From a virus, in IMG/VR virus record IMGVR_UViG_3300021963_000506, positions 1-28,970 of that record: a DNA stretch of 28,970 bases; one strand, written 5' to 3'. Of the stretch, positions 2,582 to 26,452 are shown piece after piece. The translations under genes and the position numbers were made by a program. The number at the start of each line of letters is the position of its first letter. Positions within the stretch are counted from its first letter, which is position 1. The notes beneath the pieces are model-generated. The model saw nothing but the letters and a program-made list of their open reading frames with translations, was not told where the DNA came from and ran no database searches.

Positions 2582-3499
2582 CTAAAGTACTCTAAGCGTT
2601 ATTCCTGTACTTGTATCATGCTTAAATATTTCCACATAATCTTTTACTGTTGCACTAGAAACAGTCTTTATCTTATGAGGTTCTCCAAGTGGTTGCGATT
2701 CAATCGGTTGTGACGTCTCAACAATAACTTCTTCAAGTTTAATTAGATCTTTTTTATTGTATGCAAGTGTTTGATTTACAGCAATAAACATCAATACGGC
2801 AAGTGGGTCAAACACAAATACTATAAGAAGAATCATAACCCTGACAGCTTTTTCTAATGTATTAGCGTCAGGGTTATCTTCATATATTAACGCTGCGATG
2901 TATTTGATCGGCCCGACTTCGGCTTCGACTTTACGGAGCTCGACTGCGATTGGGGCTTTCTCTTCGTTAAGGGTTGCGATGGCTTTTTGGGCGGTGGCGA
3001 TCTCTTCGAGGAGACGGGTTCTTTCACGGGCTTGGCCTCTTCTAATTGAGGCTGAACGATCGGCTCCGGCTTCGGAGGTACTTCGATCGAGGGCCGCGTT
3101 AACTTGTGAATCCAGTTGAGAAATTGTCTTACGAGCTGCATTTATATTTTCCTTTTGAACATTGATTTTTTCTTCGATGATTGCTACTTTTGCAGCAACA
3201 TCACCACTTGTTACACCTTGATCTAAATGTGCTTTAGATAAGAAACCAAATATACCCATGCTCGTTAGAAGCATAAGGATTGTGATCGCACTTACAAAAT
3301 AAGTTTTAAGTAGTATTGTAGTGCGTTCCCAATTCTGATATAACCAGGACGTAACTACGATCTTTGATAGACCTAATACTGCGCCCATGATTGCAATTGA
3401 GTATGGTGCGCCTGAAAAAATAGCCATCAATCCCATGATGGCATAGTACTCTGCAATTGCTGAGAGTGATATTGCGCTTAAGAATAAGAGATAAATCAT
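2582..3499 (-). CDS. Membrane protein with central coiled coil, 305 aa
   Basis: Three or four TM segments fill residues 1-95, a charged helical region fills about 100-200, and another TM segment lies near 222-245 (VMILLIVFVFDPLAVLMFIA). The helical part carries an Arg-rich stretch (SASIRRGQARERTRLLEEI). I associate this arrangement with an uncharacterised family common in marine T4-like phages. The start overlaps the upstream stop as ATGA. The coding DNA at about 2895-3120 is much richer in G+C than its surroundings and uses GCC, ATC, GTC and CTC codons. This creates long spurious frames in other phases. Confidence 0.85.
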   Translation of the reverse strand: MIYLLFLSAISLSAIAEYYAIMGLMAIFSGAPYSIAIMGAVLGLSKIVVTSWLYQNWERTTILLKTYFVSAITILMLLTSMGIFGFLSKAHLDQGVTSGDVAAKVAIIEEKINVQKENINAARKTISQLDSQVNAALDRSTSEAGADRSASIRRGQARERTRLLEEIATAQKAIATLNEEKAPIAVELRKVEAEVGPIKYIAALIYEDNPDANTLEKAVRVMILLIVFVFDPLAVLMFIAVNQTLAYNKKDLIKLEEVIVETSQPIESQPLGEPHKIKTVSSATVKDYVEIFKHDTSTGITLRVL

Positions 3500-3900
3500 A
3501 GCTTTACGTGTGATCTGTGTATTTTACAATTGATGATACCATTATACCACTCGTCTATATTTTCAAGTACTTTTCTTGAAAATTGTTCACGAGCTTCAAG
3601 GTACGACATCGTTCCTTTATTATCGCACAAATAAAGAATTTCTCTTGTAAAACTTTGTTGCCCAAGCTCGGCAACGTCCTTCTTTAATTCTTCCGAAGAA
3701 GACCAATATGATTGCCAGTCAGATAGTACCTTTTCTTTCTTCTTTTTACCTTTTACGGTTTTAGTCTTTGAAAACCAGAAGAGTTTTTTACCTATGTACT
3801 TTCTGCCGCTATTCGTATTTGTAATCAGATAGACGAATCCTATATGTTTCTCTATCTGATCTTCAGTAAACTCTTTATTTTGATAAATCCACATTACCAT
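3496..3900 (-). CDS. GIY-YIG-like endonuclease-type protein, 134 aa
   Basis: Residues 22-38 read FVYLITNTNSGRKYIGK, matching the VYLI-x(8)-YIG core of GIY-YIG nucleases. EAREQF near residue 102 could hold the conserved Glu. The basic insert at about 46-58 (KTKTVKGKKKKEK) is typical of a phage subfamily I have seen in T4-like genomes. It is too short for a complete homing endonuclease with a DNA-recognition domain, so it may be a stand-alone nuclease or a structural relative. No clear ribosome binding site is seen, and the ATG at 3894 is an alternative start. Confidence 0.7.
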   Translation of the reverse strand: MVMWIYQNKEFTEDQIEKHIGFVYLITNTNSGRKYIGKKLFWFSKTKTVKGKKKKEKVLSDWQSYWSSSEELKKDVAELGQQSFTREILYLCDNKGTMSYLEAREQFSRKVLENIDEWYNGIINCKIHRSHVKL

Positions 3901-4198
3901 TACCAGTGCTTGTAATGGTATATTTATAATCTAGTCCTGCGTTACCCGTACTAGTAATCTTATAGGTACTAGATGCACTAGCATTTTCGCATGTTACTAC
4001 GAATGGCGATTGCCAATATCCTGGCCATGTTTCTTTTTTAACATCGTATTCTTTGATCTGATAATAATCAGGTCTCATATCATACCACGGAGTTGGTGTT
4101 TTATTCTGTTGATTCTGTGTATCAGAAACGCCAGTTTTAATTTCTTCGTGTGTTCCATCGTCATAGTAGATTGTTACCTTATTGATCTTCTTCGTCAT
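3875..4198 (-). CDS. Hypothetical protein with C-terminal repeat, 107 aa
   Basis: The ATG at 4198 has GAGGAG seven bases upstream, which decides the start over an earlier frame opening. The N-terminal part (VTIYYDDGTHEEIKTG) looks like a short beta unit. The middle is Trp- and Pro-rich (PTPWYDM, WPGYW). The end holds two near copies of Y-x-I-T-S-T-G-N. It overlaps the zinc-ribbon gene by 20 bases. Function unknown. The repeat and aromatic content would fit a structural or adhesion role, which is inference only. Confidence 0.7.
   Translation of the reverse strand: MTKKINKVTIYYDDGTHEEIKTGVSDTQNQQNKTPTPWYDMRPDYYQIKEYDVKKETWPGYWQSPFVVTCENASASSTYKITSTGNAGLDYKYTITSTGNGNVDLSK
3921..3928 (-). promoter_or_regulatory. 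Possible T4-type late promoter box TATAAATA
   Basis: This exact T4 late -10 octamer lies 21 bases before the ATG of the GIY-YIG-like gene, inside the 3' end of the upstream coding region. Only two exact copies were found on the coding strand. Because it falls in coding sequence it may be chance. Confidence 0.3.
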
Positions 4199-12014: not shown

Positions 12015-12484
12015 TTCTTACTCTCTGTACCACTTTGAGAAGATTGCGCAGCAATGTTTAGAGATTTTATAAACTCTTTAGGTATTTCACATTCGCCACC
12101 AGCTGCAAACCTAGTATCAAACTTAACAACCTCACGATCAACGTATCGTATTACTTCTTCACCCTTTTCTCTTATTATTCTTTGTTGAGTAACAACTTTC
12201 TCAACAATCTTAACTGTTTCTTTTGCGCCTTCTGCTTCTGCTGCTGCAAGTTTTACCTCTAACTCTTTTACTCTAGCTTGCCACGCCTCTTCATTCGAAA
12301 TTGCACCTGACATATAAACACCAAATGCTATTAACACAATAGACACCAATTGTATTGGTGTCTTATACATATAAATTGCAGGAATGGGAATCAGTCGTAA
12401 AAAATATGTAACAGTTAGTCCCAGTACTCCTACAAGAAGTATACCATAAAAGATCCAGTTAGGAAGAAAGCTAAGAATCCACAT
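12011..12484 (-). CDS. Inner-membrane spanin-like protein, 157 aa
   Basis: Two N-terminal TM segments (about 10-30 and 42-61) are followed by a long periplasmic helix (residues 66-130, AWQARVKELEVKLAAAEAEG and onwards). A C-terminal CEIPKEFIKSLNIAAQ resembles the ends of Rz-like proteins. The gene order i-spanin, o-spanin, endolysin supports the call. An extra TM segment relative to classical Rz is unusual. Tight TAATG coupling to the preceding capsid-targeted gene suggests one late transcript. Confidence 0.62.
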   Translation of the reverse strand: MWILSFLPNWIFYGILLVGVLGLTVTYFLRLIPIPAIYMYKTPIQLVSIVLIAFGVYMSGAISNEEAWQARVKELEVKLAAAEAEGAKETVKIVEKVVTQQRIIREKGEEVIRYVDREVVKFDTRFAAGGECEIPKEFIKSLNIAAQSSQSGTESKK

Positions 12485-12771
12485 TATTTTTTAACGATGT
12501 AGCTTACGTTTTTCTGTCCGCTGGTAGGATGAATAAAAGTTTTCTTAAATACTTTTCCGCCATGTTCTTTAGCGTGCGAAAATGCATCTTCTTTTTTACC
12601 AAATTCATTGGCTGGAGCTTTAATCATAGGCGAAGCTTCTTCTTTTTTAACCGTTTTATCTTTTGAACCAGCAAGTTTACGACCAACTGCGCTTGCTAAT
12701 GCTCGTCCAGCTACAGAACCAAGTGCAATAAGAGCTGGATTTTCTAGAATAAATTCTTTAAATGTTTTCAT
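12484..12771 (-). CDS. Small internal head protein with capsid targeting sequence, 95 aa
   Basis: The N-terminus MKTFKEFILE is almost identical to the T4 internal-protein targeting sequence MKTYQEFIAE, with Glu10 at the prohead-protease site (IxE). Cleavage would leave 85 residues: an Ala/Gly-rich helix (ALIALGSVAGRALASAVGRK), a Lys-rich linker and a small C-terminal unit (FGKKEDAFSHAKEHGGKVF). In T4 such proteins are packed with the DNA and injected. The net charge is basic, which suits DNA contact. It is a candidate functional counterpart of T4 IPI*. The activity is unknown. Confidence 0.8.
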   Translation of the reverse strand: MKTFKEFILENPALIALGSVAGRALASAVGRKLAGSKDKTVKKEEASPMIKAPANEFGKKEDAFSHAKEHGGKVFKKTFIHPTSGQKNVSYIVKK

Positions 12772-15785: not shown

Positions 15786-16232
15786 TTAATTTCCCTTCAA
15801 GGATGAAGTTAACATCCACGCGTGTTTCTTATGAGTATCGATTCTTTGAGCAATAAAATCTGCTAAACCTTGCTCATTAGAATCTGTTGCAAGTACAAAT
15901 GTTTTGTTTAGACAATCAATAACTTCATTGTTGTCAGCTACTAAACTATTTAGCATTTGTTTTACGTTATCTCCAACAATTAACGAGTTTTCGGTTAATG
16001 TTGAACTTGTATATAATTCTGTTAAACTTGGTGGAGCGTACTCTCCAAGCTTTCTAAGATTCTCTGCGAGTGGATCTACAGCGCCATATAGGTCCTCGTA
16101 TAGATCAGCAAAGAAATCATGATACTGGCTGAAGTGAATTCCTTCAACGTTCCAGTGAAATGCCTGAGCCTTGAAGTACATGACAAATGTATTTGCAAGA
16201 CAATTCTTTAGTGATAATCTTAATTCATCCAT
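15786..16232 (-). CDS. Dps/ferritin-like protein, 148 aa
   Basis: The Dps ferroxidase set is complete with exact family spacing: H26, H38, D53 and E57 (FHWNVEGIHFSQYHDF, then VDPLAENLRKLG). Dps proteins form 12-mers that oxidise Fe(II) with peroxide and can bind DNA. Here the usual Lys-rich DNA-binding tail is absent at the N-terminus. The gene abuts the large internal head protein and lies inside the virion block. It is therefore probably expressed late, and may be part of or packaged in the particle. It has no capsid targeting sequence. Confidence 0.9.
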   Translation of the reverse strand: MDELRLSLKNCLANTFVMYFKAQAFHWNVEGIHFSQYHDFFADLYEDLYGAVDPLAENLRKLGEYAPPSLTELYTSSTLTENSLIVGDNVKQMLNSLVADNNEVIDCLNKTFVLATDSNEQGLADFIAQRIDTHKKHAWMLTSSLKGN

Positions 16233-16243
16233 TTTAATTCCAA

Positions 16244-18367
16244 TTATTTAGTGTATGTTTTGTGTGTTAAACGATCATTCTCTACTTTGCGTACTCTTGG
16301 TACTAGCTTCATAGCAATTCTATTAAGTACAACTTTTCTTTTTTGAATTGTACGTTCAATTCTTTCCTTTTCCGCTACTGATAATTTGCTTAGAGGCTTT
16401 CTTGCTAATCTCTGTTTCATTAGATTAACTGCAAGTCTACGTGCTCTATTATTAATTACCTTATTACTAGAGCGCATCTTTAATGCAATCTTTTGTCTAC
16501 GCTCGCGCTTAGCTTGCGTCTTTGCAAATCTCATCTTCGCTTTAATTCTTTCACTACGCGAAAGAACTTCCATAATGACTTCTTCTTTAATATCGATGAT
16601 ATGCTCGCCGGTTTCATCATCGATAATTGCTAGTTCTTCGTCGTCATATGCTTCGAGATAATCGTCATCAGTCATACCACCAATCATATCATCGATATCT
16701 TTATCTAAGAATCCCGATTCTCCAACACCATCGTCACCATCTATATCCATATCATCTTCTGTACCAAGAGAAGCTTCGCCAAGTTTATGTTTAATTTTCA
16801 TTCTACGATGGCTATCGGTTCTTCCTCCAAGTGATGAACCAACTTTCTTATGTTCTGGATCTTGAGAATGTTCTGCTTCTTGATCAGACTCATTGTCTTT
16901 TACGATATTCTTAACAGAAACTTGTTCTGCTACTTTACCAGCAACAATCTTATGATCATACTTAATGCCTGCATCGGCCGCCATCTTTAGCATATTGCTA
17001 ATAATAGACCATGCTTCGGGAGTAAGACGTTTATTTTTTACTGCACGTAATCCCTGATTAACCATGTTCTCTGGTCCACTCTTCTCATCTACATCCATTA
17101 CTCCTAGAGAAGATGCAACTATTCGAGCAACCTTAATCTTATCTGCTGGTGAGAATTTCATTTCTTGTAATCCTTGTTGTACTTCTTCGCCGAAGGCTTC
17201 ATCTTTGCCTGAATTTTCATAATCTATTAAAACGCCTTCTAACTCGTGTTGATGCATGTGCCAATAGTCTTCGTGATGCATAAATTCACCAACCTTGTTT
17301 AGGCTTTCACGAGCTTTTTCATGAGCTGCAATCCATACATCCTTTTCGGCATTAGTAAATTTTTCACCAGTTAAATGCTTATCGTTTAATCCCATGTAAA
17401 TATCAGTTGCTTTAAGTGCATTCAATACTGCAATGGGATCATGTTTGTGCGTGGTTGCGCGTTCAATAGTATCTTGGAATGCTTTGGCCGCATCAGCAGA
17501 ATGATGAAAGTTCTTAGTAGTGTAACCCTTATAGGAGATCTCTGTTGGCGTAGGACCAGGTCTAATATCTTCTTCAATATCTATCGGTTGAGCATCACTC
17601 AACCATTTCTTACTGAGATCACCTAACTTATCAACTACTGTAAGATAATTAGATCCTCGATCAACTATCTCAAATACGTTCTTTCCATCAGATACTTTAT
17701 CTCCAATGTTAAAGATTTTGCCAGCAAAATATAGTTCACGTAATTCATTCGTTTCAAACTTAACTTGTTCTTTAACTGGCTCAACACCCATGCCTTCACG
17801 AATATCATTCATAAGACGTTTGCCATCTAACTCGGTCATGGTATGTGGTAGACCTTTCTTAAAGAGATTATAATCTCCTTTCTTAGCGGCCTCTCTCATC
17901 TTAGTACCAGACATGCCTGATGCACTATCCGAATCTGGATCACGTTCACCTGCAGATACAACTTCTATCGTATCAAAGGTAAAGTTTTTTCCGTTATACT
18001 TGTTTAGTAACTGAGTGTATTCTGCAATTCTATCTGACCCTGCAACCATAACAAGGTTTTTATACTTCTTAGATAGCATTGCCGCTGCTTCCATGAATGT
18101 ACGTACTTGTTCGTTTGCTGCAACGAAATTAGTCTTAGGAAACATTCTCTTAAGGTAATATACCTTACGATCTACTGGAAGAGGATTTGATTTTTTATCG
18201 TGAGTACGTGAAGCGAATATGACGTGATCTGCCTTCTGTGCGATGGCGATCTTTTTAACTGCATTGACTAGTAATTCATGCCCTGTAGTGGGAGGTTGAA
18301 ATCTGCCAAATGCAAATACTACTTTTTTAGAGGGCAACTCCTTAATGAGTTGTCTATATTTTTTCAT
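16244..18367 (-). CDS. Capsid-targeted nucleotidyltransferase (NMNAT-like) with basic tail, 707 aa
   Basis: I chose the ATG at 18367 because GGAG precedes it and the resulting N-terminus MKKYRQLIKE fits the capsid targeting pattern. An ATG nine bases earlier is possible. Residues 16-165 are a nucleotidyltransferase domain: FGRFQPPTTGHELL (T/HxGH motif), VMVAGSDRIAEY and SGTKMREAA (the SxTxxR motif). This matches cytidylyltransferase/NMN adenylyltransferase enzymes. A central region of unknown fold follows. An acidic stretch (about 525-590) then leads into a very basic C-terminal 110 residues (AKRERRQKIALKMRS, RAIMK-type repeats), suited to DNA binding. Probably packed in the head and injected; the substrate is unproven. 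Confidence 0.8.
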   Translation of the reverse strand: MKKYRQLIKELPSKKVVFAFGRFQPPTTGHELLVNAVKKIAIAQKADHVIFASRTHDKKSNPLPVDRKVYYLKRMFPKTNFVAANEQVRTFMEAAAMLSKKYKNLVMVAGSDRIAEYTQLLNKYNGKNFTFDTIEVVSAGERDPDSDSASGMSGTKMREAAKKGDYNLFKKGLPHTMTELDGKRLMNDIREGMGVEPVKEQVKFETNELRELYFAGKIFNIGDKVSDGKNVFEIVDRGSNYLTVVDKLGDLSKKWLSDAQPIDIEEDIRPGPTPTEISYKGYTTKNFHHSADAAKAFQDTIERATTHKHDPIAVLNALKATDIYMGLNDKHLTGEKFTNAEKDVWIAAHEKARESLNKVGEFMHHEDYWHMHQHELEGVLIDYENSGKDEAFGEEVQQGLQEMKFSPADKIKVARIVASSLGVMDVDEKSGPENMVNQGLRAVKNKRLTPEAWSIISNMLKMAADAGIKYDHKIVAGKVAEQVSVKNIVKDNESDQEAEHSQDPEHKKVGSSLGGRTDSHRRMKIKHKLGEASLGTEDDMDIDGDDGVGESGFLDKDIDDMIGGMTDDDYLEAYDDEELAIIDDETGEHIIDIKEEVIMEVLSRSERIKAKMRFAKTQAKRERRQKIALKMRSSNKVINNRARRLAVNLMKQRLARKPLSKLSVAEKERIERTIQKRKVVLNRIAMKLVPRVRKVENDRLTHKTYTK

Positions 18368-18396: not shown

Positions 18397-18558
18397 TTAT
18401 TTATTCTTTTTATGTTCTTGGTCTTCGTAATCCGGTAACATTTTTGGAGTTACCGGCAATTCACCAGGTGTCATCTTTTTACGATGTAGGGTAAGCTTAT
18501 CCGTTCCTTCGTAACCAATGTTATTTTCTTCTTGAATAAAATCTTTAAACGATAACAT
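18397..18558 (-). CDS. Very small capsid-targeted protein, 53 aa
   Basis: The ATG overlaps the stop of the upstream capsid-targeted gene (TAATG). The frame runs 53 codons, starting MLSFKDFIQE, a capsid targeting sequence with Glu10 at the cleavage point. The remaining 43 residues are polar (YEGTDKLTLHRKK, then ELPVTPKMLPDYEDQ). It lies in what would otherwise be a 190-base gap. Such short injected peptides in T4 act against host functions. No activity can be assigned. Confidence 0.75.
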   Translation of the reverse strand: MLSFKDFIQEENNIGYEGTDKLTLHRKKMTPGELPVTPKMLPDYEDQEHKKNK

Positions 18559-19262
18559 TAGCAGTTCCACTTTCTAAGTGCCTTATTAATTCGTGAATCT
18601 GGATCACGCGCAGTCTTAGCGGAAGTTAAACGCTTCTTCATACCACCCATACGAGCACAGAAAGACTTACGGCGATTAGCGGCTTTACTTCCAGGTTTAA
18701 GCTTTGAAGGTTTAGTAGTTACTGCAGTTTGCAGATTACCACCAGTCTTCCTATTATAAGCATCAACGCCTTTTTGCGTTAGACCACCTTCAGAAGATTT
18801 ATGTCCTTTAGCATCAATGGCATATTCGAGAAGTTCAGCATCATCTATTGATTCAAGAGTTTCCCATATAGTTTCTGAATTAATTCCATTTTCTTCGGCT
18901 AGTTGTTCTATGACTTCTTCAATAAGATCAAATTGCTCATCAGCAGATAATTCTTCATTTGCTTTTTCTTTATTACGACGATTTTGATAATCACTAGTTT
19001 GAGCAGGAGCTTTCTTACGAACAGGTTTCTTGCCACTAATAATATCCTCTTCTCGCTTACGACGAGCAAAATAATCATTAGAAACTTCGTCTAGTTCAGT
19101 TTCTTCATTAGCAGCTTTAAAGTCTGCATCTGTAGGTGCACCTTTGCTACCAGGTTTGCGCATGCGTTCACCGGAACCAGATTTAATTCTTTTACGCTTG
19201 GCATGAATGTTATCCCACAATCCACGCTTGCCTTCTTTAATATATTCTGAAAAGTTTAGCAT
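18558..19262 (-). CDS. Capsid-targeted internal protein, 234 aa
   Basis: The ATG at 19262 has AAGGA seven bases upstream and gives MLNFSEYIKE. An upstream in-frame extension is rejected. After the targeting sequence comes a basic block (KRGLWDNIHAKRKRIKSGSG), then ELDEVS, a second protease-type site. An acidic helix follows, and a C-terminal basic block with KPGSKAANRRKSFCARMGG ends in KWNC. Both basic blocks are familiar from widespread, uncharacterised phage domains. Likely a DNA-associated internal head protein; the function is unknown. Confidence 0.78.
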   Translation of the reverse strand: MLNFSEYIKEGKRGLWDNIHAKRKRIKSGSGERMRKPGSKGAPTDADFKAANEETELDEVSNDYFARRKREEDIISGKKPVRKKAPAQTSDYQNRRNKEKANEELSADEQFDLIEEVIEQLAEENGINSETIWETLESIDDAELLEYAIDAKGHKSSEGGLTQKGVDAYNRKTGGNLQTAVTTKPSKLKPGSKAANRRKSFCARMGGMKKRLTSAKTARDPDSRINKALRKWNC

Positions 19263-20505: not shown

Positions 20506-21266
20506 ACTATTCTCCATCCATCTCTATAAATCATTTGAATTCCACCATTATCTATCCTTAGAATAAATCCGCCCGGATCATTATCAACGTTTCCTTGAAC
20601 GATAATAGGAAACTTAGAACAACGTCCGGACTCATCTTTAATAATAACATATCTACCATTCTTTACGTTTACTGGTAGTGTTATTGTTACTGTTCCAGCG
20701 TAGTTAACACCAATGTAGTAATCTTTTCTACTAACCATGTACGTTGGAGTTATCACCAATTTAGTTTGGTGATCGAGATTGATAACGTCTCCAGCTCCAC
20801 CACCGGGACCAGCCGCGGATATTTTAGCAACCCATTGTTCAAGAAACTTAAGCTTATCTGTGACAGCTTTCATTTCATTTGATATTTCCGGAGCTATTGG
20901 CTGTTGGAAACTATGAGAATCTTTTGGAAGAGCTGACAAGTATTTTGTAACATCATCTTGTCTTTGCTCAGGAGTCTTGGGTTCTACTATCTCTTCTATA
21001 AACTCTACAGCTTCAGTTAATTTCTCAGGCTGTGGTGTACTCTGCAAATCGCTGAGCATCGCTGTAACATCTTTAGCTACATTCTCTTTAACTTTTTTAA
21101 TAAGTTTTTCTTGAGGATCAGTAGCTTTAACTTGGCTTAATTGAATTAACAAAGAATCGAGATCAGCTCTAGCATTTTCTTTAACTTGCTTTAGCGCTTG
21201 ATGTTTTGGATCTTTAGCTTTTGCTTCTGCTACAAGTTTCAGAAAGTCGTTTAACTCGCTGTTCAT
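20502..21266 (-). CDS. Structural protein with tandem helical repeats and beta C-terminus, 254 aa
   Basis: The ATG at 21266 overlaps the upstream stop (ATGA). Residues 8-75 contain two consecutive repeats of about 33 residues, each with a KDP/TDP turn and a K-x-x-KVKENV/QVKENA helix. A Pro-rich linker (about 95-125) and a Gly-rich stretch (AAGPGGGAGDV) separate this from a C-terminal beta domain (TVTITLPVNVKNGRYVII, GGIQMIYRDGWRIV). That domain resembles small phage fibre or baseplate tip domains. It is coupled to the structural protein that follows. A helical shaft plus a beta tip is inferred. Confidence 0.75.
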   Translation of the reverse strand: MNSELNDFLKLVAEAKAKDPKHQALKQVKENARADLDSLLIQLSQVKATDPQEKLIKKVKENVAKDVTAMLSDLQSTPQPEKLTEAVEFIEEIVEPKTPEQRQDDVTKYLSALPKDSHSFQQPIAPEISNEMKAVTDKLKFLEQWVAKISAAGPGGGAGDVINLDHQTKLVITPTYMVSRKDYYIGVNYAGTVTITLPVNVKNGRYVIIKDESGRCSKFPIIVQGNVDNDPGGFILRIDNGGIQMIYRDGWRIV

Positions 21267-22492
21267 CTCTGCCAACCTTTAATGATGTCAGCCGAGAAGT
21301 TTGCTTTGCTGAATTCCATACGATCTACTATCTTAACTGCTCCACCAGTGAGGTGATCAATAGCAACAAAACCTTCTACGCCAGTTGTCTTAAATCCATT
21401 TGCTGTTCTAAGAAAAGTACTAATGTGTCCGGCTTGATTCATTTTATTTATGATCATTGCTTTAGCCTCAACCAACACGTTAACTAAATCAAATATTGCT
21501 ACAATCTGATTCTGATCATGATGAGCAAAGAAGTTTAGAATTTTTTTTCTCTTATCTTCTTGTGCTTTCTTTCCGGCTACAGTTGATCGCTTTTCAATTT
21601 CTTTCTCGTATTTGTCATGGATATGGTGGAATAACTCACGCACATGGGCTTTAGTATCAATAATTTGTTCTGACTTTTTAATCTTAGAATTGTTGAACGT
21701 TTTAACTGCAAGTAGTAAGTCTTCATCGTTGCTTATCCCATTTAAAGTTGGTGCGCTGATGGAGCCAAATAACTTACCAGCGCGTGACAGAACGTCTGTC
21801 ACCTTCTTTGTTTCTTCAGCTGTGAAGGTAGCAGTACCGGAATAATCATGATAATTTGCATCGTCCATCCATATAGTTGGAACTGTAGCAAATTTGTCTA
21901 CGATCGTCTTCCCAAAGCTAGCGGTCATAGACTCAAATGAATTACCTGTATATGTAGTATGCCAAACAACACCTATCTTAGCAGAGCGTACTTTCTTGCC
22001 AAGCTCTGAATCAAATGGAACTGCATATACAATTGTGTTAGGATGGAAAGTGATATACTTCTCACCATCGATGATCTCGGTCTTCTTATCATTAGTAAAC
22101 ATCAAGTCGCCTTGATATACGCCTGACTTTATACCGAGCTTTGAGAATTCTTTTAGTGCTGTCTTAAACTTCTCGGCTAAATCGCCAGAAGTATCAGCAT
22201 CAATTTCTTTGTTTGTTTTATAAATCTTAGGTTCTTTATTGAATACGCCTTTTTTAGCGATAAAGAACTTTCCATCTCGTGGATCTATACCAGCAAAAAT
22301 TGCAGGAGCTCCGTCCCACTTCACCGTTGCAGTAATTTTGCTTTTGCTGTGACCGGCTAGCATGTCTCGAAGAGACTGTAAGAATGCGATCGCTTTGCGC
22401 GTACCGGTTACACCTTCGTTGAAGACGAGATCTTCAACGTGTTCCATGTGAGTATTTTTTTCTTCTTTTATGAACTGTTTAAGATTTAGCAT
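21263..22492 (-). CDS. Capsid-targeted ligase-like nucleotidyltransferase, 409 aa
   Basis: The N-terminus MLNLKQFIKE is a capsid targeting sequence. Residues 55-67 read ATVKWDGAPAIFA, which contains KxDG (K58), the lysine nucleotidylation motif I of ATP/NAD ligases and capping enzymes. FFIAKKG follows, GVYQGDLMF sits at 124-132 in the place of motif III, and EGFVAID followed by VKIVDRMEF near 373-395 in the place of motifs IV/V. I recall KVP40-type phage relatives of unknown function. It may seal nucleic acid ends or be an inactive relative. The start lies at the predicted transcription start of P4, with no ribosome binding site. Confidence 0.75.
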   Translation of the reverse strand: MLNLKQFIKEEKNTHMEHVEDLVFNEGVTGTRKAIAFLQSLRDMLAGHSKSKITATVKWDGAPAIFAGIDPRDGKFFIAKKGVFNKEPKIYKTNKEIDADTSGDLAEKFKTALKEFSKLGIKSGVYQGDLMFTNDKKTEIIDGEKYITFHPNTIVYAVPFDSELGKKVRSAKIGVVWHTTYTGNSFESMTASFGKTIVDKFATVPTIWMDDANYHDYSGTATFTAEETKKVTDVLSRAGKLFGSISAPTLNGISNDEDLLLAVKTFNNSKIKKSEQIIDTKAHVRELFHHIHDKYEKEIEKRSTVAGKKAQEDKRKKILNFFAHHDQNQIVAIFDLVNVLVEAKAMIINKMNQAGHISTFLRTANGFKTTGVEGFVAIDHLTGGAVKIVDRMEFSKANFSADIIKGWQR

Positions 22493-22535: not shown

Positions 22536-23447
22536 TTACCAAGGATCACCAGATAATTTTACTGATGAAGCCATTTTTTCTGATTCAAACTTAAAACGAA
22601 TCTTCATTATTTTCTTTTCACCAGCTTTTACGCCAATAGATTCATTACCAACTATCTCTAATTTTATCTCGTATTTACTTAAGGCTCTAAGCTTTTCATT
22701 ATCTGTAGGATCCATAACAACTGCTTTATATGGAGGTTTACTTCCCTGACCAGTAACTTTTACGTAAGGAGGAATTAATATTTCTGCGTCCATCCAATCA
22801 GATAATAGATACTTCATTAAGTCTTTCTGATTAAATTTCTTTAGTCTTGTATATAATTCATCACGCATTGCAGCTAGAATCTTAACGCCAATTTCTTCTG
22901 TATGCTTTTTAATACCAGGATTATTTCTAATATAATTTTTACGATCCTGAGCACTTGGAGGTAACTTAAATTTTATAATAGTTTGTTTTAATTGATTATC
23001 ATATTCATCTGCTAATTTAATTCCTAAATTACGATCTACTGTACCTAATCCTGGATTCTTAAATCCAATGTCTCCACTACCCTTTGTAGCTTTAGCAGAT
23101 AATCCTAAGAAACCTTTATTAGGTCCACTACTAAATTGAATTAATATATCAGTTGGGTTTTTCTTTTGATCTACTGGAGCTCCAAACGCAGCCGACATAG
23201 AACCCGGTCTAGCGGTCCACCATACGCCTTTAACTGAATTAGAATACCCGTTCTGTTTAGCCCATATTAAAAATTCTTTAGCCATAGCTTCAGCTTTACC
23301 GATAGCATCACTCACTTCATCTGGCTTAGCTTCTTTACAACGGTTATTATACTGAGTTTGCGCGTCCTTATCGTACCACTTGTTTCCGTTAAGGACGAAT
23401 CCTGTATAAATTTCATTAATATCAGATAATATAGTATTAGCCGTCAT
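22536..23447 (-). CDS. Conserved phage protein, possible PD-(D/E)xK-like fold, 303 aa
   Basis: The ATG has GGAG five bases upstream and follows a TATAAATA late box. The central block PTDILIQFSSGPNKGFLGLSAKAT has Asp, a hydrophobic strand, and SAK where restriction-type nucleases have (D/E)xK after a DILI strand. GVWWTARPGSM and WMDAEILIPPYVKVTGQG are further conserved-looking motifs. I recall relatives in T4-like phages without function. The nuclease idea is inference from one motif and could be wrong. It precedes the ligase-like gene by 43 bases. Confidence 0.75.
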   Translation of the reverse strand: MTANTILSDINEIYTGFVLNGNKWYDKDAQTQYNNRCKEAKPDEVSDAIGKAEAMAKEFLIWAKQNGYSNSVKGVWWTARPGSMSAAFGAPVDQKKNPTDILIQFSSGPNKGFLGLSAKATKGSGDIGFKNPGLGTVDRNLGIKLADEYDNQLKQTIIKFKLPPSAQDRKNYIRNNPGIKKHTEEIGVKILAAMRDELYTRLKKFNQKDLMKYLLSDWMDAEILIPPYVKVTGQGSKPPYKAVVMDPTDNEKLRALSKYEIKLEIVGNESIGVKAGEKKIMKIRFKFESEKMASSVKLSGDPW

Positions 23448-23511: not shown

Positions 23512-24696
23512 TTAGAAGAAGGACTCAAGACTTGGTATGTCTACCTTATCTCGAATCTCATAGGTCTTTTGGCCATTAAACTGATAGACGAGATTAGCAT
23601 TAATCTTATCTCTCTTGCCTTCAAGAGATGCCTTTATCTCATTTGCCATGTCTGTAGCAGTTCCTACGGGAACGTTCTGGCATACGTGATTTAGATATCT
23701 TGATGGATTTAGAAGCTCAAAGTCTTCTGGTAAACCCATGATACTCATAGCTTCACGATAGGTTAGGTATCTATCTTCAGTGGGATGAGTTAGCAAATTG
23801 GGATAGTGACCAACGAATGCTCCAATATGTCCCTTAGGAACAGTTGTTAGTCTTCGCATAATATTACCCTCACCTTGCAACTTAGTGAAGATTCTATCAC
23901 ATCGTTCTGCGGCTCGGTCAAGACCTTGTGACCTCATCCATTGACCAACCTCATCGTACTTCTTTCCTTTACGCTCAAGCCAATCCATTGCATTATCGGT
24001 TTTCTCGATAATATTATAGAAGTCTTTATGAGTGATACCACCTTCAAGTTCTTCTAAAACATAACGATACATAGGATCCCACTTGCTTGGAATCTTCTCG
24101 TTAGTAACTATTTGCTGTGAAGCATTCTTAGATACTCCATTGAACACACTCTCGATTGTATTGAGAGGTTTATCAAAGTAATTAAACAAAGGAACAGTCT
24201 TACCTTTCCAGAAGAAATAGAAAGACCTTTCACGGATCTGAGGAACGCCGTGCAACAGTGACTTAGTCCTATAGATAGACATAGTGTAACCATTACGTGT
24301 AGCAATATCGTGTAGTTTATCTACGATAGGCTTACCAAGCTTACCTGCAAATCCTGGCGCATTCTCTCCCCACATTACCATCGGCTTAATTTGTTCTAGC
24401 ACGTATGTTGTGGTAGTATACATCCATTCATTCGCTGCTGCATCTGAACTGGCGTATCCACTAAGCGACGACAAACCTGCGCAAGGACAAGTCGTACCAA
24501 CTACGTCAACGTAATGAGGATGCTTTCCACCTTCATCTAGCAAGATGTATGGAACATCTTTGTAATGATTTACGAGATGTGAATCATTAGAATTGAATGG
24601 ACTATACGAAAGAAGATAGTCTGGTTTACTTCCAAATGCGGCGGCTTGGCCGAGCGCTTGTCCACCAATAAGTGGTACGATAAAGGCATGCTTCAT
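23512..24696 (-). CDS. Divergent C5-cytosine DNA methyltransferase
   Basis: The catalytic motif IV is intact (TTCPCAGLS, Pro71-Cys72). So are ENAPGF (motif VI, 111-116), QIRERSFYF (motif VIII, 153-161), YREAMSIMGLPEDF (motif IX region) and CQNVPVGTATD (motif X). The AdoMet end is atypical: motif I reads VPLIGGQALG without the usual D/E-x-F-x-G-x-G start, and the acidic residue of motif II falls in LLSYSPFN with none present. The protein overlaps agt by four bases and ends at a terminator. It probably acts on cytosine C5 in DNA. Why a phage with hydroxymethylcytosine needs it is unclear. Confidence 0.85.
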   Translation of the reverse strand: MKHAFIVPLIGGQALGQAAAFGSKPDYLLSYSPFNSNDSHLVNHYKDVPYILLDEGGKHPHYVDVVGTTCPCAGLSSLSGYASSDAAANEWMYTTTTYVLEQIKPMVMWGENAPGFAGKLGKPIVDKLHDIATRNGYTMSIYRTKSLLHGVPQIRERSFYFFWKGKTVPLFNYFDKPLNTIESVFNGVSKNASQQIVTNEKIPSKWDPMYRYVLEELEGGITHKDFYNIIEKTDNAMDWLERKGKKYDEVGQWMRSQGLDRAAERCDRIFTKLQGEGNIMRRLTTVPKGHIGAFVGHYPNLLTHPTEDRYLTYREAMSIMGLPEDFELLNPSRYLNHVCQNVPVGTATDMANEIKASLEGKRDKINANLVYQFNGQKTYEIRDKVDIPSLESFF

Positions 24697-25898
24697 AGGT
24701 TATCTTTTATCTTTTGCATCATCTCTGCAAATGTATGCTGAGAATCTTGGTGTTGTTTATAAAATTCAAATGCCATATTACGATACTCATCTCGCATAAC
24801 CTGATCTTTAGACAACTTAGCAATTAAATCATAAGCTGGTTGCATATCATTATCATCGAGCCAAACGGTACCATTGTCCTTGCAATTGATTAGCTTATCG
24901 CCAAACTTACGATGAGTACAACGTTCGCCATAACTCTTACGGAAGACTGGAACTACGCCAGTGCATGCAACTTCGCAGTGAGTATATTCAATCGAACGCT
25001 CAATGAATCGTTCATCAAGGATTGATAATTGGTATCCAAATCCACATGCCGACATACGATAAAGCATCTGCTCGTTTATATATGGACCAAACACATAAGC
25101 TGGTTGATCCTTCTGCATGTTAATCGTATTGATGTCATCGGCAATGTGACCATGAAACTCCGATAATTCTCTGAAGGCAAGATACGCTGGTGATTTTTCA
25201 ATACCTTCGAACGTAGTAATACAACCATTAGGACGTAGGAATTCATTATGAAACTTAAACATTTGGACATAGCCTTTCCAACTTGTGGTACGGCCAATCC
25301 ATTTATGTTCGTTTGGTCTAGTCTGATCAATGTCAAGCCAGTACTTAGCTCTCACTGCATCGAAGTCCATTCCTGGTTGAAAGTTAAGAATAGTCTTAGA
25401 CTTATCTTCTTCAAGGAATCCAGCTAAACCTCCGCCATCAGTTACTGTGGAAACATACCTAGCGAAATCGTTATTAGTACTATGGCCAAAAAGAATGCTA
25501 GCTTTTCTAACAGACTCATTGATTGCGGCATTGCGCTTGATTGAAAGAGATGAGTGGTCATGTTGAATGAGAACAACTGGTTTGACAATTTCGTCTAGTG
25601 CTCTCTTAAACTGATTAATACATTCTTCACTATGACCTACCGATGGTAGACTATTGATGATGACTACATCAGCCTTGTTACAACCCTCGATCATCTTATT
25701 AGTTTCTTCAGGCTTTGCAAACTTCAATTGTACTACGTTCGAAACATCATGGGCATTCTTGCGAGTCCACGATTTATCTTTAGACGAGAAGACAACAAAG
25801 TCGTATCCATTCTTTGCCATCCATTTAGTTTGCTCAACAGTAAATTTAGTGACACCGCATCCTTCAATACCGCGTCCCATAATGATTGCGACTTTCAT
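24693..25898 (-). CDS. agt: Alpha-glucosyltransferase for hydroxymethylcytosine DNA
   Basis: The 401-aa protein follows T4 AGT (400 aa) block by block: RGIEGCGVTKFTVEQ, IQHDHSSLSIKRN, KWIGRTTSWKGYVQMF, EGIEKSPAYLAF, MSACGFGYQLS, IEYTHCEVACTGVVPVF and QHQDS. T4 AGT transfers glucose from UDP-glucose to hydroxymethylcytosine in DNA with alpha linkage. The ATG at 25898 overlaps the preceding stop (ATGA), and an upstream extension is unlikely. It lies in one operon with dCMP hydroxymethylase and dCMP deaminase, which supports the substrate. Confidence 0.93.
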   Translation of the reverse strand: MKVAIIMGRGIEGCGVTKFTVEQTKWMAKNGYDFVVFSSKDKSWTRKNAHDVSNVVQLKFAKPEETNKMIEGCNKADVVIINSLPSVGHSEECINQFKRALDEIVKPVVLIQHDHSSLSIKRNAAINESVRKASILFGHSTNNDFARYVSTVTDGGGLAGFLEEDKSKTILNFQPGMDFDAVRAKYWLDIDQTRPNEHKWIGRTTSWKGYVQMFKFHNEFLRPNGCITTFEGIEKSPAYLAFRELSEFHGHIADDINTINMQKDQPAYVFGPYINEQMLYRMSACGFGYQLSILDERFIERSIEYTHCEVACTGVVPVFRKSYGERCTHRKFGDKLINCKDNGTVWLDDNDMQPAYDLIAKLSKDQVMRDEYRNMAFEFYKQHQDSQHTFAEMMQKIKDNL

Positions 25899-26452
25899 TC
25901 TTCTTCGCTCCATTCTCCAGTTTTATTTCGCTCTGCAGCAGCATCTTCTCCGTAAATTTCATCGGCATGAGCATCGCATACGGTTCGGTGCCAGCCTTGA
26001 TAATAAGTACGACCAGGAGAACCACATTGTTCACAGGTACGATAGCTCATATGCTCTGCAAACGAAATATAATTATAGTGCTCGTCTGTGCCACCTTCAA
26101 CATAGAATCTAAGTCCGCCAAACTTTTCTTTTACTTGAGATGCAACAGGCACTAATTCTTTTTGTCTTTCCATTTCTAGACGACGTTCTTCAACTTCTTC
26201 AGCTGTAATTGGCTTACCATCTTTCCAAGGCCAACTACCACTCGTGTCATAGTATTCTTTTATGTGTTCGTATCTATCTTTAGCGTATTGATATTTTGAA
26301 GTTAGTTTAGAACACAATATGTCAATGATATTATACCATCCATTGCCGCAATCGAAACCCCAGCACATTGCAGTGTGAGTCATTGGCGCATGACGATTCT
26401 TAAATATCAAAGGATATTTAGCGCATAGTGCTTCATCTAGTTCTTGTTTCAT
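25895..26452 (-). CDS. Conserved Cys-rich phage protein, 185 aa
   Basis: The ATG at 26452 has AAGGA eight bases upstream and starts MKQELDEALCAKYPLIF. Conserved-looking features are MTHTAMCWGFDCGNGW, FGGLRFYVEGG, and a Cys cluster (TCEQCGSPGR, then TVCDAHADE) that would bind zinc. I recall relatives scattered through phages without function. It sits between dCMP deaminase and agt, with ATGA coupling to agt, so it may take part in the modification pathway. That is context only. Confidence 0.8.
   Translation of the reverse strand: MKQELDEALCAKYPLIFKNRHAPMTHTAMCWGFDCGNGWYNIIDILCSKLTSKYQYAKDRYEHIKEYYDTSGSWPWKDGKPITAEEVEERRLEMERQKELVPVASQVKEKFGGLRFYVEGGTDEHYNYISFAEHMSYRTCEQCGSPGRTYYQGWHRTVCDAHADEIYGEDAAAERNKTGEWSEEE

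What the first reader, a model, noticed from the sequence alone, without database searches (positions are those of the whole stretch)
21263..22492. A capsid-targeted protein with the KxDG nucleotidylation motif of ligases
K58-W-D-G61, KKG, GVYQGDLMF and EGFV/VKIVD appear in the order of ligase motifs I, Ia, III, IV and V in a 409-aa protein that also has a targeting sequence. An injected end-sealing or RNA-repair enzyme would act before any phage gene is expressed, for example on genome nicks or on tRNA cut by host defence.
Basis: partly seen in the sequence, partly recalled or inferred. Interest (0 to 1): 0.7.

Follow-up and report, generated by a model that had tools for sequence, protein, structure and literature searches.

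The report
Capsid-tagged ligase-fold phage protein family
A very common phage protein that databases list only as 'unknown function' is predicted to be an enzyme that joins broken nucleic-acid ends, and in this group of phages it carries an address label for being packed in the virus head and injected with the DNA.

Summary
The finding holds up. Window 21263-22492 (-) encodes a 409-aa member of Pfam DUF6267 / PHROG 455, a family with no assigned function that is widespread in T4-like cyanophages, pelagiphages and freshwater relatives. Down to 25% identity, every proposed ligase-motif residue is invariant: K58-x-D60-G61, K81, D129, E373-G374 and K387. AlphaFold models of this protein, and independently of a shorter cyanophage form, match polynucleotide ligases. 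For the short form all 50 top PDB entries are ligases; the best is Naegleria RNA ligase (Z 8.1, 174 residues, 3.9 A), with RNA ligases ahead of DNA ligases. There is no OB fold. The family is therefore very probably a new branch of the covalent nucleotidyltransferase (ligase) superfamily. The leader MLNLKQFIKE|E fits the T4 capsid-targeting sequence: the same pattern finds IPII, IPIII and gp24 in T4 and three virion proteins in S-CREM2. It is confined to the window's clade. Homologues without it were not reported in three cyanophage virion proteomes, while the neighbouring NMNAT-like protein, which has the leader, was. In S-PM2 the two are fused. Catalysis, substrate (RNA versus DNA), donor (ATP versus NAD+) and packaging are untested.

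The parts
21263..22492 (-). DUF6267 / PHROG 455 gene, 409 aa; predicted covalent nucleotidyltransferase of polynucleotide-ligase fold
22463..22492 (-). Leader, residues 1-10 MLNLKQFIKE, capsid-targeting-like; predicted gp21-type cut after E10 (IKE|E)
   Evidence: pattern test; E10 invariant in A1; residues 1-14 of the model have pLDDT under 50
22310..22321 (-). Motif I, K58-W-D-G61, predicted adenylylated lysine
   Evidence: invariant; a split intein in a relative (L044) sits directly after G61
22247..22255 (-). Motif Ia, K80-K81-G82 (K81 invariant)
22106..22114 (-). Motif III, Q127-G-D129
   Evidence: Q127 and D129 invariant
22025..22042 (-). Motif IIIa region, P151-N-T-I-V-Y156
   Evidence: P151, N152 and Y156 invariant
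21437..21820 (-). Helical insertion, about residues 225-352, between motifs IIIa and IV; shortened in the 301-324 aa cyanophage forms
   Evidence: model secondary structure; alignment
21365..21376 (-). Motif IV, E373-G-F-V376
   Evidence: E373, G374 and V376 invariant
21320..21334 (-). Motif V, K387-I-V-D-R391 (one lysine; not the KxK of many ligases)
   Evidence: K387 and R391 invariant
16244..18367 (-). HIGH-family NMNAT/cytidylyltransferase-like protein with its own capsid-targeting-like leader MKKYRQLIKE; fused to DUF6267 in S-PM2
22536..23447 (-). Upstream ORF, 303 aa, no family assigned; its position holds unrelated or very diverged ORFs in relatives

Best explanation
The protein is a divergent polynucleotide ligase: K58 attacks a nucleotide donor (most likely ATP) to form lysyl-AMP, using D60, K81, D129, E373 and K387, and AMP is passed to a 5'-phosphate so that a 3'-OH can seal it. 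The fold lies nearer RNA ligases (NgrRnl, Rnl1, Trl1, REL1, Rnl2) than DNA ligases and has no OB domain, so RNA ends, such as tRNA or other RNA cut by host defence, are the more likely substrate. In this clade the first 10 residues act as a T4-type capsid-targeting leader, removed after E10 by the gp21-type prohead protease. The enzyme would then be packed in the head, together with the leader-bearing NMNAT-like protein encoded nearby, and enter the cell with the DNA. Shown by computation: fold, motif conservation, leader pattern, synteny and fusion. Inferred: catalysis, RNA preference, cleavage, packaging, injection.
For: Invariant motif residues down to 25% identity. Two AlphaFold models, pLDDT 84.7 and 80.6. 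Foldseek's first four hits for the long form are DNA/RNA ligases. VIA-align rows are led by T4 Rnl2 (Z 6.5, 103 residues, 3.4 A) and REL1 for the long form, and for the short form all 50 listed entries are ligases, led by NgrRnl (Z 8.1, 174 residues, 3.9 A), RNA ligases Z 8.1-5.5 and DNA ligases mostly at or under about 5.1. Precedent: RLIG1 also has KxDG, one described motif-V lysine, no RNA-binding domain and NgrRnl as top DALI hit, and is an RNA ligase that did not seal nicked DNA (PMC11494293). Leader: regex controls in T4 and S-CREM2; 118 of 147 long forms match strictly and 0 of 33 short cyanophage forms; gp21-type protease in 9 of 9 genomes tested. The leader-bearing NMNAT neighbours are virion proteins in S-SZBM1, S-CREM2, S-SCSM1 and S-SM1. 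NMNAT-like gene downstream in 71 of 83 loci; fusion in S-PM2.
Against: No Foldseek E-value below 0.001 against the PDB, and Z values sit in the range the tool calls common. Sequence-profile comparison with phage ligases is null, though true ligase pairs also fail it. Motif V has one lysine and motif III has Asp where ligases usually have Glu. No T4-like polynucleotide kinase was found in any DUF6267 phage tested, so ends left by anticodon nucleases might not be healed. Homologues without the leader were not reported in S-SZBM1, S-CREM2 or S-SCSM1 virions, and I found no virion proteome for the leader-bearing clade. G004 and G005 already encode a DNA ligase, an Rnl1-type and an Rnl2-type ligase, so a fourth is not obviously needed.
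Confidence: 0.5

Rival explanations
1. It is the missing DNA ligase of T4-like cyanophages: a nick-sealing enzyme of the replication module that replaces gp30, with no role in the virion outside the leader-bearing clade.
For: A review states that cyanomyoviruses lack g30 and may hold an unrecognised distant homologue (PMC2984593). DUF6267 lies just after uvsX and gp41 in many genomes, and in 8 of 14 DUF6267 genomes searched it is the only ligase-like gene found with PF01068, PF09414, PF09511 and PF01653.
Against: It coexists with a canonical PF01068 DNA ligase in 6 of 14 genomes, including G001, whose DUF6267 is 82% identical to the window's. There is no room for the OB fold that DNA ligases use. 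RNA ligases score higher structurally. Host ligase can substitute for gp30.
Confidence: 0.2
2. The fold is a covalent nucleotidyltransferase but the product is not a sealed nucleic acid: for example transfer of AMP or GMP to an RNA 5' end (capping) or to a protein.
For: The superfamily includes capping enzymes, and the Foldseek rows of the short form include a capping enzyme (1p16, rank 13). Motif V is atypical. The long helical insertion (residues 225-352) has no counterpart named in the searches.
Against: Almost all matches are ligases; capping enzymes also use an OB fold (general knowledge), which is absent here.
Confidence: 0.12
3. The N-terminal leader is not a capsid address and the protein works only inside the infected cell.
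For: The leaderless family members keep the whole enzyme core and were not reported in virions, so the ancestral function may be intracellular. The regex also gives a few chance hits in T4 and S-CREM2.
Against: The leader is conserved across a strongly supported clade, is predicted disordered, picks IPII, IPIII and gp24 in T4, and the neighbouring protein with the same kind of leader is repeatedly found in virions but was not detected in S-PM2, where the fused form has none.
Confidence: 0.27

Closest known systems
Naegleria gruberi RNA ligase (NgrRnl, Rnl5 type)
   Same: Top structural match of the short form (Z 8.1, 174 residues, 3.9 A); KxDG motif I (general knowledge)
   Different: NgrRnl has an additional N-terminal domain (general knowledge); DUF6267 has a short helical N-terminal region with invariant N13, H15, H18, E20 and, in long forms, a helical insertion between motifs IIIa and IV
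RLIG1 (human C12orf29 / Yasminevirus RLIG1)
   Same: KxDG, a single described motif-V lysine, nucleotidyltransferase domain without an added RNA-binding domain, NgrRnl as nearest structure (PMC11494293)
   Different: Compared by description only; no direct sequence or structure alignment with it was made here. Eukaryotic and giant-virus protein; no capsid leader or NMNAT partner is described
T4 RNA ligases 1 and 2
   Same: Phage enzymes of the same predicted fold (Rnl2 Z 6.5 with the long form; Rnl1 Z 7.1 and Rnl2 Z 6.3 with the short form)
   Different: No sequence similarity detected; DUF6267 occurs beside both types in G004 and G005, so it is a separate lineage
T4 internal proteins IPII, IPIII and Alt (capsid-targeted, injected proteins)
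   Same: IPII and IPIII start MKTYQEFIAE|A, the same pattern as MLNLKQFIKE|E
   Different: Those proteins are not ligases; virion presence of DUF6267 is not shown

Membership tests
Covalent nucleotidyltransferase / polynucleotide ligase superfamily | Motif I KxDG with invariant lysine | tested here: met
   K58, D60, G61 invariant in A2, 32 sequences, 25-100% identity
Covalent nucleotidyltransferase / polynucleotide ligase superfamily | Motif Ia basic residue, motif III acidic residue, motif IV Glu-Gly | tested here: met
   K81, D129 (Asp rather than Glu), E373, G374 invariant
Covalent nucleotidyltransferase / polynucleotide ligase superfamily | Motif V with two lysines (KxK) | tested here: inconclusive
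   Only K387 is invariant; the second lysine is absent. RLIG1, a working RNA ligase, is described with one motif-V lysine
Covalent nucleotidyltransferase / polynucleotide ligase superfamily | Nucleotidyltransferase fold | tested here: met
   Two predicted models; ligases lead all PDB comparisons, 50 of 50 listed entries for the short form; individual scores are moderate
Covalent nucleotidyltransferase / polynucleotide ligase superfamily | Covalent lysyl-AMP (or GMP) intermediate | not testable with these tools
   Needs biochemistry
ATP-dependent DNA ligase / capping enzyme | OB-fold domain following motif V | tested here: not met
   The protein ends 22 residues after K387; the model shows one helix there
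RNA_ligase (PF09414), RNA_lig_T4_1 (PF09511), DNA_ligase_A_M (PF01068) | Match to the family profile | tested here: not met
   Pfam scans of 32 members find DUF6267; no ligase family appears among the 25 families listed nor for the window protein itself
T4-type capsid-targeted internal protein | N-terminal targeting sequence ending in a gp21-type site | tested here: met
   Pattern match with controls; conserved in the clade
T4-type capsid-targeted internal protein | gp21-type prohead protease in the same phages | tested here: met
   PF03420 in 9 of 9 genomes tested; the 29-kb window itself, a fragment, was not searched for it
T4-type capsid-targeted internal protein | Found in the virion, processed | tested here: inconclusive
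   Published data cover only leaderless homologues, which were not reported

The most novel reading that the evidence does not exclude
A virion-packaged, self-recharging NAD+-dependent ligase: DUF6267 takes AMP from NAD+ and releases NMN, and the co-packaged, sometimes fused, NMNAT-like protein regenerates NAD+ from NMN and ATP. The invariant N-terminal N13/H15/H18/E20 cluster would be a new NMN-binding module. Such a system could seal cut nucleic acid at the moment of entry and resist NAD+-depleting defences. No evidence here shows the NAD+ donor; the fusion, synteny and shared leader only make it possible.
Probability: 0.1. Interest if true: 0.88.

Novelty: new variant of a known kind. Interest (0 to 1): 0.62.

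Why it matters
DUF6267 was present in all 14 non-T4 phage genomes tested, in 463 phage records and in at least 588 stretches of viral contigs, yet it carries no function in Pfam, PHROGs or NCBIfam. A ligase assignment would name one of the more abundant unknown proteins of marine and freshwater phages. It makes testable the open question of whether cyanophages, described as lacking a T4-type DNA ligase, hold an unrecognised one. It also suggests that repair enzymes, not only inhibitors and modifiers, can be delivered from the phage head.

Tried and rejected
Profile-profile comparison (hhalign) of DUF6267 with T4 Rnl1, T4 Rnl2, phage Rnl2-like and DNA-ligase alignments gave nothing above unrelated controls. 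It was set aside as uninformative because T4 Rnl2 against phage DNA ligase also fails; only Rnl2 against its nearer kin succeeds. Sequence search of the PDB found no relative. Weak Pfam hits (Biopterin_H, SWI2_SNF2, kinase and others) scatter and are taken as chance or composition. An idea that SSCSM1_90, a virion protein of S-SCSM1, is a homologue of the window's upstream ORF was rejected: no significant similarity. T4 late-promoter sites (TATAAATA) in the window do not exceed chance (2 found, 3.2 expected). No PADLOC defence match and no tRNA in the window. No capping or DNA-ligase assignment was made, for lack of an OB fold. No paper in the library names DUF6267.

Full report
WHAT IS THERE. 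The window is a whole 28,970-base IMG/VR virus record. The finding's ORF is exact: 21263-22492, minus strand, 409 aa. It is a full-length member of Pfam DUF6267 (E 1e-105) and PHROG 455, both of unknown function, and has no confident NCBIfam or PADLOC match. tblastn finds it in 463 phage records, mostly T4-like cyanophages plus Pelagibacter HTVC008M, Methylophilales Melnitz and Stenotrophomonas DLP6.

MOTIFS. In 32 homologues of 51-97% identity, and again in a mix of long forms and 301-324 aa cyanophage forms down to 25% identity, few columns never vary; in the second set only 36 of 409. They include K58-W-D-G61-A-P, K81, Q127 and D129, P151-N152, Y156, E373-G374-x-V376, K387 and R391. All eight ligase-motif residues I tested are invariant. 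W59 is not universal (the DLP6 homologue, outside that alignment, has KYDG). Motif V has one lysine, unlike the KxK of many ligases, and motif III has Asp for the usual Glu. An independent sign that motif I matters: in L044 the gene is split by a split intein placed directly after G61 (KWDG|CVHEDT... and ...LIHN|SPAIFAG), with a free-standing ORF between the halves. Inteins favour active-site motifs (general knowledge).

FOLD. The model of the window protein has pLDDT 84.7. Foldseek against the PDB gives no E-value below 0.001, but ranks 1-4 are DNA or RNA ligases, and VIA-align is led by T4 Rnl2 (Z 6.5, 103 residues, 3.4 A), REL1, Trl1, archaeal RNA ligases and DNA ligase 1. To remove the helical insertion (residues 225-352) as a confounder, I folded the natural short form from S-SM1 (pLDDT 80.6). 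All 50 listed entries are then polynucleotide ligases: NgrRnl (Z 8.1, 174 residues, 3.9 A), T4 Rnl1 (7.1), Trl1 (6.9), REL1 (6.4), Rnl2 (6.3), and DNA ligases mostly at or under about 5.1. Single scores are moderate, and the tool warns that Z under 8 is common; the weight lies in the uniform ranking in two models and in the agreement with invariant motifs. Sequence profiles do not see the relation, but they also fail between known ligase families. The published case of RLIG1 is closely parallel: KxDG, one described motif-V lysine, no RNA-binding domain, NgrRnl as best structural match, RNA ligation but not nicked-DNA ligation (PMC11494293).

CAPSID LEADER. Residues 1-14 are disordered in the model. 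MLNLKQFIKE|E matches M-x(1,4)-[FLYIVM]-x-x-[FYLM]-[ILVM]-x-E. As a control, this regex hits 6 of 263 T4 ORFs, including the two at 65416-66415 that begin MKTYQEFIAE (identified as IPII and IPIII from general knowledge) and gp24; and 5 of 265 S-CREM2 ORFs, of which three are mass-spectrometry virion proteins (gp6, gp13 and the cytidylyltransferase gp154). In the window it hits four genes: this one, 12484-12771, 16244-18367 and 18558-19262. In the family, 118 of 147 long forms match strictly and most of the rest nearly so; none of 33 short forms do, nor do S-SZBM1 or S-CRM01. Leader-bearing forms fall in one supported clade. A gp21-type protease is present in 9 of 9 genomes tested.

VIRION EVIDENCE. 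I found no proteome for the leader-bearing clade. In S-SZBM1 (PMC9146016), S-CREM2 (PMC10665884) and S-SCSM1 (PMC9602691 and record annotation) the leaderless DUF6267 proteins were not reported in virions. The NMNAT-like proteins of these three phages, and of S-SM1 (PMC3037559), all start with a leader and are virion proteins. In S-PM2, where the NMNAT-like domain is fused to a leaderless DUF6267, the cytidylyltransferase was not detected in the virion. This fits a working leader, with the usual limits of mass-spectrometry sensitivity.

CONTEXT. DUF6267 follows uvsX and gp41 in many genomes, and an NMNAT-like gene lies downstream in 71 of 83 loci with enough sequence. Among 14 DUF6267 genomes, 6 also have a PF01068 DNA ligase, 3 an Rnl2-type and 2 an Rnl1-type RNA ligase; none has an NAD+-dependent DNA ligase; 8 have DUF6267 only. 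A review says cyanomyoviruses lack g30 DNA ligase and may have an unrecognised distant homologue (PMC2984593). T4 PNK-like sequence was found in none, and only weak 2H-phosphoesterase hits in two.

VERDICT BY STEP. Ligase-type nucleotidyltransferase fold: about 0.85. Active enzyme with K58 as nucleophile: about 0.75. Ligase rather than another transferase: about 0.7. RNA rather than DNA ends: about 0.6. Packaged in the head in this clade: about 0.65. These are my estimates; steps after the fold are inference. The explanation as a whole is put at 0.5; a strict reading in which every step must hold would be lower.

NOVELTY. It is a new family within a known enzyme kind, with a new setting (capsid leader, NMNAT partner or fusion, helical insertion, no OB fold). 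It is not filed under PF09414, PF09511 or PF01068, whose profiles it does not match, nor as a DNA ligase or capping enzyme, for lack of the OB fold.

Noticed in passing
L044:2647-5050: DUF6267 gene split by a split intein exactly after motif I KWDG; N-intein ORF 2647-3201, a free-standing ORF 3223-3909 (possible homing endonuclease, no convincing Pfam match) and a C-intein of 38 residues starting at 3887. A literature search was not followed far enough to say whether this insertion site has been reported.
   Followed up: partly
L424:3492-5267 (S-PM2 LN828717): DUF6267 fused to an NMNAT-like HIGH-family domain in one 591-aa protein; in the older S-PM2 record (NC_006820) the same region is annotated as two ORFs in different frames.
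   Followed up: partly
window 12484-12771, 16244-18367, 18558-19262: Three more genes with capsid-targeting-like leaders (MKTFKEFILE, MKKYRQLIKE, MLNFSEYIKE).
   Followed up: partly
window 15786-16232: Ferritin-like/Dps-like protein (Pfam Ferritin, 1.4e-21) encoded among the leader-bearing genes.
   Followed up: no
window 23512-25913: C5 cytosine methyltransferase-like and DNA alpha-glucosyltransferase genes side by side just upstream, suggesting modified DNA in this phage.
   Followed up: no
window 22536-23447: Upstream 303-aa ORF with a D...(S)xK arrangement (NPTDILIQF...GLSAKA) that might be a nuclease; equivalent positions in relatives hold ORFs with no significant similarity, one of them (SSCSM1_90) annotated as a virion protein.
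   Followed up: partly
window 22430-22456 (DUF6267 residues 13-21): Invariant N13-x-H15-x-x-H18-x-E20 cluster before motif I, not known to me in ligases; a possible metal- or cofactor-binding site.
   Followed up: no
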